From positions 176,320 to 240,319 of the forward strand of contig NW_024468566.1 of NCBI RefSeq assembly GCF_001632365.1: a stretch of DNA of 64,000 nucleotides. Direction: 5' to 3'. Each line of letters opens with the position of its first letter. Positions within the stretch are counted from its first letter, which is position 1. The notes beneath the pieces were generated by a model. That model was not told where the DNA came from, ran no database searches, and saw nothing but the letters and a program-made list of their open reading frames with translations. This DNA comes from Laetiporus sulphureus 93-53 (Eukaryota > Basidiomycota > Agaricomycetes > Polyporales > Laetiporaceae). This document shows, one piece after another, positions 60,814 to 62,450 of this stretch. Made by a program: the position numbers and the translations under genes.

Positions 60814-61535
60814 TGTCACAGATTTTCGCCACAAAGTCTGCACGTGACTTTTCTCACACCACAGATCACGTGCTTCACCAATATCTCATGACACTCAGCC
60901 ACAGACGCGACACGTAGAGATCAGGTGATAGTCCACATCACATGTTATGGTCCAGACCCGTGGATGATACGGTCGGACCTGTCTATTCCAGGATACAATA
61001 GAGGCACCCATTTGGGAACAAAGGGAACAAGGACTATTGTTATGCATCGGCCTTCCGCTTCCTATTAGTTTAGCCAGAAGCCTAGATAGGTACGATGTTC
61101 ACACCGGAGAACAAAAGGGAAACCAAGATAGGCACGATGTGCACACGCATTACTGCGGCAACCATCGATCTTCCCACTTATTGTTCTACTTCCGGACATC
61201 CTATTGTTTCATGTACGGCCATTTGCTTATACCCGTAGATAGGTAGCTTAGGTAAGATAGCCTGCTGTATGTGTATATAAGACCAGCCATGTAGGAGACG
61301 AAACCTCAGATTGTTTCTCCTCGTCTACTACCTGTAGCACTCACTGAGCTTACCAGCTCCTTCATATATCTCTCACCCTTTCCTGCGTCTGCCACATCAA
61401 CCAGTAAGTCAACAGGCTCTTGCGCCACATAGGGTTCAGGGGGATACCTTTGGGATCAGGGGGATCAGGGCGGCACGTTCCACGTGACTGTCCCTTTTTA
61501 GTCTTTTTGATCTCTTGTCCGGTGTTACTGTGACA
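60814..61535 (+). repeat. 5' LTR of gypsy element 2
   Basis: 722 bp from TGTCACA to TGTGACA (exact inverted ends). Contains TATATAA at 61274-61280, the predicted transcript start near 61306, and CACGTG-type palindromes near its left end, as in element 1. The 3' LTR lies outside the window, so the left edge rests on the terminal motif and on where the hAT homology stops. Confidence 0.8.
61306..61318 (+). promoter_or_regulatory. Predicted transcript start of element 2 (self-complementary segment)
   Basis: TCAGATTGTTTCT, 32 bp after the TATA box at 61274, is the exact complement of the primer site at 61538-61550. In Tf1-type elements this segment is the RNA 5' end that folds back to prime reverse transcription. 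Confidence 0.75.
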
Positions 61536-61537
61536 TT

Positions 61538-61550
61538 AGAAACAATCTGA
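61538..61550 (+). other. Self-priming primer-binding site of element 2
   Basis: AGAAACAATCTGA, two bases after the LTR end, complementary over 13 bases to 61306-61318. Same spacing (TT) as in element 1. Confidence 0.8.
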
Positions 61551-61571
61551 CATTTTCTGCACCCCTGCTTA

Positions 61572-62429
61572 GTGTTTAACACAAGTGGCCGCGTATTTTC
61601 AGCGCAAGCAGTTTCAGCCGTAGCGCGCGGCTTTTTTGACACACATTCCAATCCGATCTCTACCCGGCGTGAGCCTCAGCAAGACTCTGAGCTGCCCAAA
61701 GCCTCAAAGTGCAAGGCCACCCCCAGGATCGACCTCGACGCCCACTACAAGCATCAGGAAACCAACAAGGAGCGTGGAAGGCTCCTCACACTTGCGTCAC
61801 TAGGCGCATCGTCCACAGACAGGCAGCGAGCAGCAGCTAGGGTTATAGATACCACACATATCATAAAGCGCAGAATCATCCACAAGCCACGTGATCACAC
61901 CCCACCGCTTGAACGCTACAAGCCCAGAAAGGGACGTCTTACCACTGGTAGTCGCAAGCCGGCACCACCCCCAGAGCTTATCACCTCCAACGCTGTTCCC
62001 CCCATTATTGTTGCTCCACAGCCAGTGCGACCCCTACCCAACTTCGTTAAGGTCAACACACACGCACGACCCATTTGCCCTCTTCCGTCCAAAGTCAGGC
62101 CCACCCTCCACATCGAAACACTCAAGAAGCAGGTCTCCGCTACCCGCTTCAGACTACAACTGATATTAGGAGCATTCTGGGAGAAAATCGATCAGGACAA
62201 ACGAAAGAAGGTACAACTCCTCGCATCGGAGTTAGACAAAGTCTGCGCAGACCTCTACACGGGGACTCGTGAATACACCTTTGTCGACAAACAGGTCATC
62301 AACACGTGCTGCCTAGAAATAGGAAGGATCAACTTCAAGGAGATAGGAAAGCAGCAGAGGTTAGACGAGATCGTCAGGGAGATTGGGAAAGTCAAGGACA
62401 AGCAGTACCTAGGCTTCATCTTCAATTAG
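61572..62429 (+). CDS. ORF0 of element 2, AUG-less frame upstream of gag, 285 codons
   Basis: Open from just after a TGA at the primer site to TAG 62427-62429, with no ATG codon in the frame. The GTG at 61572 (AGTGTTTAACAC) aligns with the GTG of ORF0 in element 1. The product is basic and Pro-rich in the middle (RPLPNFVKVNTHARPICPLP), followed by a helical C-terminal domain (KQVSATRFRLQLILGAFW, LASELDKVCADLYTG, EYTFVDKQVINTCCLEIG, INFKEIGKQQ) shared with element 1. It has no zinc knuckle or protease motif. Gag starts 21 nt after its stop. Between the predicted transcript start (61306) and the gag ATG (62451) there is no ATG in any forward frame. Translation would need a near-cognate start. 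Function unknown. Confidence 0.7.
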   Translation: MFNTSGRVFSAQAVSAVARGFFDTHSNPISTRREPQQDSELPKASKCKATPRIDLDAHYKHQETNKERGRLLTLASLGASSTDRQRAAARVIDTTHIIKRRIIHKPRDHTPPLERYKPRKGRLTTGSRKPAPPPELITSNAVPPIIVAPQPVRPLPNFVKVNTHARPICPLPSKVRPTLHIETLKKQVSATRFRLQLILGAFWEKIDQDKRKKVQLLASELDKVCADLYTGTREYTFVDKQVINTCCLEIGRINFKEIGKQQRLDEIVREIGKVKDKQYLGFIFN

Positions 62430-62450
62430 TTTAATTACATCTATATCACA

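What the first reader, a model, noticed from the sequence alone, without database searches (positions are those of the whole stretch)
61306..62450. 1.1-kb retrotransposon leader without a single AUG (element 2)
From the predicted RNA start to the gag ATG I find no ATG in any of the three sense frames over about 1,145 bases. At one per 64 bases about 18 would be expected, so a chance absence is roughly e^-18. CAT and other near words are common, so this is not a base-composition effect alone. The leader contains a 285-codon open frame. Together this implies selection against AUG, so that ribosomes can start ORF0 at a non-AUG codon and still scan to gag.
Basis: seen in the sequence. Interest (0 to 1): 0.93.

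Follow-up and report, generated by a model that had tools for sequence, protein, structure and literature searches.

The report
Retrotransposon leader hiding a split AUG
A fungal jumping gene keeps its first 1.1 kb free of start codons so that ribosomes can reach its coat-protein gene, and it probably builds the start codon of an extra protein by splicing, joining an A to a UG that lie apart in the DNA.

Summary
In detail: 61306-62450 holds no ATG (0 of 10,000 dinucleotide shuffles do as well, mean 8.7). The quoted e^-18 is too strong. A second element (E1, minus strand) has an equally ATG-free leader. The genome (Laetiporus sulphureus 93-53) holds many copies of both; I read 40 and 30. They are self-priming Ty3/Gypsy elements: the RNA 5' end pairs with a site just after the LTR, which fixes the leader. 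ORF0 (285 codons) is a real protein under purifying selection, homologous between the two families. A non-AUG start is not the best explanation. In both families the LTR carries a 5' splice site CCA|GTAAGT, and a CTGAC branch site is followed by the first AG, AG|TG, at the front of ORF0. Removing this 169-nt (E1: 182-nt) intron joins A to TG: RCC-AUG, in frame with ORF0. Shuffled leaders give this in 3 of 20,000 (E2) and 0 of 20,000 (E1). I propose that unspliced, AUG-free RNA makes Gag and is the genome, while spliced RNA, which lacks the primer site, makes ORF0. No RNA data were available, so splicing is inferred. ORF0's function is unknown.

The parts
61306..61403 (+). E2 exon 1: RNA 5' end (self-primer 61306-61318) to the base before the donor; last bases usually ACCA, GCCA or ACTA; part of the LTR (R-U5)
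   Evidence: 5' end fixed by complementarity to the PBS; exon end A in 39 of 40 copies, purine at -3 in 39 of 40
61346..61359 (+). hairpin GAGCU-UACC-AGCUC; E1 has GUCU-UACC-AGAC in its place
   Evidence: fold; E1 forms counted; in E2 the script's pattern matched only 10 copies, 8 of them with this hairpin
61404..61572 (+). inferred intron (169 nt): U5, PBS, branch site, acceptor
   Evidence: only GTAAGT in the leader; first AG after CTGAC; joining gives ATG in ORF0 frame
61404..61409 (+). 5' splice site GTAAGT
   Evidence: 39 of 40 E2 copies; 29 of 29 readable E1 copies; ACCAGTAAGTC is the longest word shared by the two R-U5 regions
61538..61550 (+). self-primer binding site AGAAACAATCTGA, complementary to 61306-61318
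   Evidence: E1 has a different but likewise complementary pair
61547..61551 (+). branch-like CTGAC, overlapping the PBS
   Evidence: one of two CTRAY words in the leader; CTRAC in 37 of 38 E2 copies
61568..61585 (+). conserved hairpin over the acceptor (bulged A of the AG)
   Evidence: two pairs changed on both sides between E1 and E2
61571..61574 (+). acceptor AG|TG; TG is the second part of the split start codon (GTG codon 1 in unspliced RNA)
   Evidence: AGTG in 39 of 40 E2 and 29 of 30 E1 copies
61573..62429 (+). ORF0 exon 2 (285 aa with the joined A; TAG stop)
   Evidence: KN/KS 0.12-0.36 over codons 46-285; frame over 250 codons in 16 of 40 copies
62451..64000 (+). gag of E2 (ATG at 62451, context ACAATGG); runs off the contig end
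   Evidence: Ty3_capsid E 7e-4, below the curated cut-off
58650..58764 (-). E1 exon 1 (RNA start about 58764; last base A at 58650)
58468..58649 (-). E1 inferred intron (182 nt), GTAAGT ... CTGAC ... CCAAG
   Evidence: CTGAC unchanged in 28 of 30 copies as read
57674..58467 (-). E1 ORF0 exon 2 (broken by one TGA in this copy; frame over 250 codons in 14 of 30 copies read)
57340..57642 (-). E1 ORFb (MPRY..., 100 aa), at the first AUG of the E1 unspliced RNA
51298..57380 (-). E1 gag and pol frames (protease, RT, integrase, chromodomain, dUTPase)

Best explanation
A self-priming Ty3/Gypsy retrotransposon makes two mRNAs from one leader. (1) Unspliced RNA has no AUG for 1145 nt; ribosomes scan through the leader and all of ORF0 and start at the gag AUG at 62451. 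The same RNA is the genome, since it keeps the primer-binding site. (2) In part of the RNA an intron, 61404-61572, is removed. It starts at a donor inside the LTR and ends at the front of ORF0; the last exon base A and the first bases UG of exon 2 become RCC-AUG, the first AUG of that RNA, and ORF0 is translated. The AUG is stored in two pieces because an AUG in the genome would stop ribosomes before gag. Shown by sequence: absence of AUG, ORF0 selection, conserved sites, self-primer. Inferred: that splicing happens, its efficiency, and the translation of both RNAs.
For: AUG absence in two families. ORF0 is a protein: KN/KS 0.06-0.43 from codon 46 on in the intact copies, homology E1-E2 (best E 9e-5; the window's own copy only 0.025). 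One GTAAGT, one CTGAC, and the first AG after it gives an in-frame ATG in both families; after shuffling the upstream part 3 of 20,000 (E2) and 0 of 20,000 (E1) do. Donor, acceptor, exon-end A and purine at -3 nearly universal. The donor lies in the longest word shared by two otherwise diverged R-U5 regions; 30 of 2,000 shuffles share a word as long. Indels found in 3 or more copies: 14 of 14 classes upstream of the junction are not multiples of three, 4 of 4 downstream are (neighbouring classes may be one event aligned in two ways). The donor is unpaired in the predicted fold.
Against: No RNA evidence. No spliced retrocopy: 0 exact junctions in the genome and 28 one-mismatch hits against 44 in the reversed control; none of the 10 of these 28 that were fetched resembled the leaders. 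This is expected if spliced RNA lacks the PBS, but it is no support. Within E2 the donor is not exceptionally conserved (49 of 181 six-base windows do as well; E1, columns AGTAAG, 11 of 211). CTGA is also held by the self-primer, and a conserved hairpin could by itself conserve AG|TG. E1's acceptor is AAG, not YAG. The first 45 codons show low synonymous change and KN/KS of 0.46-0.67 and no third-position excess in E2 (18, 18, 19 informative sites over 57 codons), so coding there is not proven by substitutions, and a start near codon 41 is not excluded. The two families are related, so the shuffle results are not independent. A distant single-copy ORF0-like locus would join to GUG, not AUG.
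Confidence: 0.67

Rival explanations
1. ORF0 starts at a non-AUG codon of the unspliced RNA, GUG at 61572 or, in E2, CUG at codon 41, and leaky scanning serves gag.
For: GTG is present at codon 1 in 16 of 16 intact E2 and 14 of 14 intact E1 copies; E2 has CTG at codon 41 with G at -3 in 14 of 16; E1 has AGG at codon 19 with G at -3 and +4 in 14 of 14. The substitution signal of coding begins near codon 46, which a start at codon 41 would fit. GUG starts are known in a retroviral leader (MuLV, PMC5778647, passages read) and conserved near-cognate starts in fungal leaders (cpc-1, PMC5487733, passages read).
Against: GUG context is poor in both families (-3 U or C). The CTG of E2 has no counterpart in E1, whose other kept near-cognates within ORF0 are AAG and AGG, recalled as the weakest starters. 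The N-terminal residues M(F/S)NT....F are shared by both families. It leaves the conserved donor unexplained.
Confidence: 0.18
2. The donor is real but serves to hold U1 snRNP and prevent early polyadenylation in the 5' LTR, as in foamy viruses; the ATG-making junction is incidental.
For: In foamy viruses the major splice donor lies in R and U1 binding to it suppresses the 5' poly(A) site; a section heading says independently of splicing (PMC3694450, abstract, outline and Background read).
Against: Does not predict a branch site and an AG|TG in ORF0 frame, nor A before the donor (39 of 40, 29 of 29).
Confidence: 0.07
3. Gag itself comes from a spliced RNA with an acceptor near 62429 (ATTAG at the ORF0 stop), so the leader is mostly an intron.
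For: The 3' end of ORF0 reads like a weak acceptor (TTCAATTAG / TTTTTGTATTAG).
Against: Of 51 YAG words only two have a CTRAY 12-45 nt upstream, 61572 and 62195, not this one. AUG avoidance across ORF0 would then be pointless.
Confidence: 0.05
4. ORF0 is not translated on its own; its absence of AUG reflects only scanning to gag, or it is made as an ORF0-Gag fusion by readthrough of TAG 62427-62429 (same frame in this copy).
For: ORF0 and gag share the frame here.
Against: KN/KS well below 1. E1 has another ORF between ORF0 and gag, and copy L018 has a 4-nt insertion between ORF0 and gag.
Confidence: 0.03

Closest known systems
Tf1/Tf2-type self-priming Ty3/Gypsy elements (Tf1; Tcn1 proposed)
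   Same: First bases of the RNA complementary to the PBS just after the LTR (Tf1: first 11 bases, PMC7175516, passages read); here 13 bp in E2
   Different: ORF0 before gag, AUG-free leader and LTR splice donor; whether Tf1 has any of these was not tested
PosPlaTy3 elements of Postia placenta (PMC2864245, passages read)
   Same: dUTPase at the C-terminus of Pol (PosPlaTy3-4), as in E1; the paper's figure key mentions an additional ORF of unknown function
   Different: No leader, start codon or splicing is described in the passages seen; I could not compare sequences
Foamy viruses
   Same: Major splice donor in the R region of the LTR (PMC3694450)
   Different: There pol is encoded by a spliced transcript; no start codon assembled at the junction is mentioned in the parts read
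RTBV P4 (rice tungro bacilliform virus)
   Same: Splicing of leader RNA lets an accessory protein be translated (PMC5902531, passages read)
   Different: There splicing fuses a leader uORF, which has its own start in the unspliced RNA, to a distal ORF; here no AUG exists until splicing
MuLV glyco-Gag
   Same: Extra product starting in the leader before gag, non-AUG (PMC5778647, passages read)
   Different: Glyco-Gag is an N-terminal extension of Gag; ORF0 is divided from gag by a stop, and its two families share no near-cognate start in good context

Membership tests
Ty3/Gypsy LTR retrotransposon | reverse transcriptase domain | tested here: met
   RVT_1 in E1 and in DNA about 2.4 kb downstream of the end of the E2 leader copy in L007, L083
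Ty3/Gypsy LTR retrotransposon | two LTRs | tested here: met
   E1: 50620-50919 and 58500-58799, 98% identical. E2: the contig ends in gag, not testable
Ty3/Gypsy LTR retrotransposon | integrase downstream of RT with chromodomain | tested here: met
   E1 only (rve, Chromo, SH3_Tf2-1); E2 not tested
Ty3/Gypsy LTR retrotransposon | Ty3-type capsid | tested here: inconclusive
   PF19259 E 7e-4 (E2) and 0.0069 (E1), below the cut-off
Tf1-type self-priming | RNA 5' end complementary to PBS, with compensating change between families | tested here: met
   E2 CAGATTGTTTCT and E1 CAGTCTTATTCT each match their own PBS; 13-bp stem in the E2 fold
Tf1-type self-priming | RNase H cleavage producing the primer | not testable with these tools
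   biochemical
Non-AUG-initiated leader ORF (glyco-Gag type) | near-cognate start in good context, kept across families | tested here: inconclusive
   Only GUG codon 1 is at the same place in both families, -3 U or C; each family alone has one in better context (E2 CTG codon 41, E1 AGG codon 19)
Non-AUG-initiated leader ORF (glyco-Gag type) | product is an N-terminal extension of Gag | tested here: not met
   TAG 62427-62429 divides ORF0 from gag
Spliced subgenomic mRNA with LTR donor | conserved donor, branch site and acceptor | tested here: met
   branch site and acceptor could also be held by self-primer and hairpin
Spliced subgenomic mRNA with LTR donor | spliced RNA observed | not testable with these tools
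   no transcript data; indirect search for retrocopies negative

The most novel reading that the evidence does not exclude
The element is an RNA switch. Its start codon for ORF0 exists only after splicing, and the same few bases (CTGA) are both the branch site and part of the self-primer duplex, so an RNA folded for reverse transcription cannot be spliced and a spliced RNA cannot be reverse transcribed. Each transcript is committed either to genome and Gag or to ORF0.
Probability: 0.3. Interest if true: 0.88.

Novelty: new variant of a known kind. Interest (0 to 1): 0.72.

Why it matters
It would be a clear case of a start codon kept in two pieces so that one genome can serve as an AUG-free scanning leader and still encode an upstream protein. 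Gene finders that ask for an ATG in the DNA miss such a start: the annotated models of this fungus attach ORF0 to other upstream sequence, begin inside it, or are partial. One RT-PCR would test it, and the same search could be run on other self-priming elements.

Tried and rejected
Spliced retrocopies: pattern of the joined junction over the whole genome, no exact match, fewer one-mismatch hits (28) than the control (44); the 10 of 28 fetched show no leader similarity.

Annotated gene models: P0003 (..LSNTSG), P0006 (..LMSNTSG) and P0019 (..LTTVV) have the sequence expected from use of the AG|TG acceptor; P0012, marked partial, reads through the intron end unspliced (..NKTDLLRPYQVSNTG); P0013, P0014 and P0015 join elsewhere. 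I saw proteins only, not gene structures; a search for the upstream peptides of P0003 and P0006 in the fetched DNA found nothing. The proteins P0001, P0002, P0007, P0008 and P0010, without source names, start at the same residue, but a gene finder that accepts GTG would give that too. None of this is used as evidence.

Third ORF0-like locus (C60:11900-13300, L081): shares the C-terminal domain (hhalign probability 98.5), single copy in the search. It has CTGAC and CAG|TG in the matching place and a GTGAGT donor, but joins to GUG and has ATGs in the would-be intron and in the frame. It does not fit; it may not be an element at all.

Viral contigs: 115 pattern matches, no relative. In one search the six E1 columns labelled GTAAGT were one base early (AGTAAG). 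In one search the hairpin A pattern missed most E2 copies. The orientation was wrong for minus-strand loci; one search replaces it. In one search the six copies used for the Met count and synonymous shuffles were chosen among the ATG-free copies, so their lack of internal Met is no independent result; decayed copies do carry Met.

Paper searches (lists capped at 8-20 titles, some of thousands) showed no title or abstract start on this element or on a splice-assembled start codon in an LTR retrotransposon. The library is open-access only, and I read only passages or sections of the papers named.

Full report
WHAT WAS CHECKED. The window is the end of contig C57 of a 38.6-Mb genome. Contig lengths and protein records identify it as the polypore Laetiporus sulphureus 93-53. 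From 61306 to 62450 there is no ATG in any sense frame. In 10,000 dinucleotide shuffles the mean was 8.70 and none had zero. Inside ORF0, with the protein held fixed, synonymous shuffles expect 2.04 and 888 of 10,000 have none. For four E1 ORF0s, chosen among ATG-free copies, the same test gives 3 to 23 of 3,000. So the feature is real; its strength comes from the whole leader, from ORF0 lacking internal Met, and from its recurrence.

IT RECURS. The other retrotransposon of the window, E1 on the minus strand, has no ATG for 1122 nt from its RNA start. I read 40 copies of the E2 leader out of 224 first-look candidates, of which the tool scored 40, and 30 copies of the E1 leader out of 140 candidates, 40 scored. 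Of the 40 E2 copies two are truncated and were left out of column and ATG counts, leaving 38. Zero-ATG copies are 3 of 38 and 6 of 30; the others carry 1-10 ATGs, and the commonest other state at those sites is ACG, 71 of 150 and 62 of 122, as C-to-T decay of old copies would give.

THE ELEMENT. E1 has LTRs, RT, integrase, chromodomain and a C-terminal dUTPase. DNA downstream of an E2 copy has an RT domain. Just after the E2 LTR lies AGAAACAATCTGA, the reverse complement of the RNA start TCAGATTGTTTCT; E1 has a different but equally complementary pair. The predicted fold closes the leader with this 13-bp duplex (z -3.25). This is the self-priming known from Tf1, where the first 11 bases pair with the PBS (PMC7175516, passages read). 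It fixes the RNA start at about 61306, so the leader is not an artefact of a wrong start.

ORF0 IS A PROTEIN. The ORF0 frame is open for over 250 codons in 16 of 40 E2 and 14 of 30 E1 copies. Among these, in 30-codon windows from codon 46 on, KN/KS is 0.12-0.36 in E2 and 0.06-0.43 in E1. E1 and E2 ORF0 are 20-24% identical over their length, and an E1 query finds E2 copies (best E 9e-5, the window's copy 0.025). In the first 45 codons synonymous change is low too (pS 0.10-0.17 against 0.26-0.59 from codon 46 on), so something besides the protein is conserved there, and KN/KS (0.46-0.67) does not settle coding; codon-position counts show no third-position excess in the first 57 codons of E2.

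WHERE ORF0 STARTS. The leader has one GTAAGT (61404), one CTGAC (61547), and the first AG after it is TTAG at 61571-61572, directly before TG. Joining 61403 (A) to 61573 (TG) gives ACC-ATG-TTT-AAC-ACA, with the A from exon 1, in frame with ORF0. E1 has CACCA|GTAAGT, CTGAC and CCAAG|TG and joins to ACC-ATG-TCT-AAC-ACT, in frame with its ORF0. Donor: 39 of 40 E2, 29 of 29 readable E1. Exon-end A: 39 of 40 and 29 of 29. Purine at -3 of the made AUG: 39 of 40 and 28 of 29. AG|TG: 39 of 40 and 29 of 30. With the upstream part shuffled, the whole configuration arose in 3 of 20,000 (E2) and 0 of 20,000 (E1). The two families are related, so these are not independent trials. Indels present in three or more copies change from 14 of 14 non-triplet classes before the junction to 4 of 4 triplet classes after it. 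One of the non-triplet insertions lies at 61552, between branch and acceptor, in copies L064 and L069 among others, whose ORF0 is intact. Of near-cognate codons kept in at least 80% of intact copies, only GUG at this very position is at the same place in both families, and its context is poor. E2 alone has CTG at codon 41 with G at -3, which would fit the onset of the substitution signal; E1 alone has AGG at codon 19 with G at -3 and +4.

WEAK POINTS. No transcript was seen. Conservation of the donor within E2 is not outstanding (49 of 181 six-base windows do as well). The CTGA is also held by self-priming, and the acceptor sits in a hairpin whose two changed pairs compensate between families, so each element alone could have another reason to be conserved. 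E1's acceptor is AAG. The distant single-copy locus does not make an AUG. A donor in the LTR may also act by holding U1, as in foamy viruses (PMC3694450, abstract and Background read).

HOW IT WORKS (inference). Unspliced RNA: no AUG before gag, so ribosomes reach 62451; this RNA keeps the PBS and is the genome. Spliced RNA: the joined AUG is first and starts ORF0; without PBS it cannot be copied, in line with the absence of spliced retrocopies. In E1 the first AUG after ORF0 starts a further frame, in weak context (U at -3 in all 14 intact copies), before gag; it is 100 codons long in 5, 141 in 3 and shorter in 6 of the 14, so E1 adds a step that E2 lacks. What ORF0 does is unknown: a basic, apparently disordered N-terminal part and a helical C-terminal domain.

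NOVELTY. Donors in the LTR (foamy viruses), leader splicing for an accessory protein (RTBV P4, PMC5902531, passages read) and extra leader products from non-AUG codons (MuLV, passages read) are known. In the capped lists I saw no paper on an LTR retrotransposon whose leader lacks AUG until splicing makes one. I rate it a new variant of a known kind.

Noticed in passing
window 57340-57642 (-): E1 has a further ORF (MPRY..., 100 aa here; 100 in 5, 141 in 3, shorter in 6 of 14 copies) between ORF0 and gag, its AUG in weak context in all 14 intact copies; no Pfam match for the L038 copy.
   Followed up: partly
window 51298-53001 (-): E1 Pol ends in a chromodomain followed by a dUTPase domain (PF00692, E 1e-30).
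   Followed up: partly
L081 (G000:C60:11900-13300): Single-copy locus with the ORF0 C-terminal domain and CTGAC...CAG|TG in the matching place; annotated as LAESUDRAFT_763694. Possible domesticated copy or source gene.
   Followed up: partly
window 61568-61585 and 58455-58472 (-): Hairpin over the acceptor, CUUAGUGUYUAACACAAG / CCAAGUGUCUAACACUGG, with two compensating pairs between families.
   Followed up: partly
window 61289: ATG directly followed by TAG lies 17 nt before the RNA start in 38 of 39 readable E2 copies; it would be a start-stop if transcription began a little upstream (read).
   Followed up: no
window 3898-19598: Four copies in a row of a repeated stretch, probably a gene family, about 4.1-5.0 kb apart.
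   Followed up: no
window 30156-30323: A tandem array with a 21-base period.
   Followed up: no
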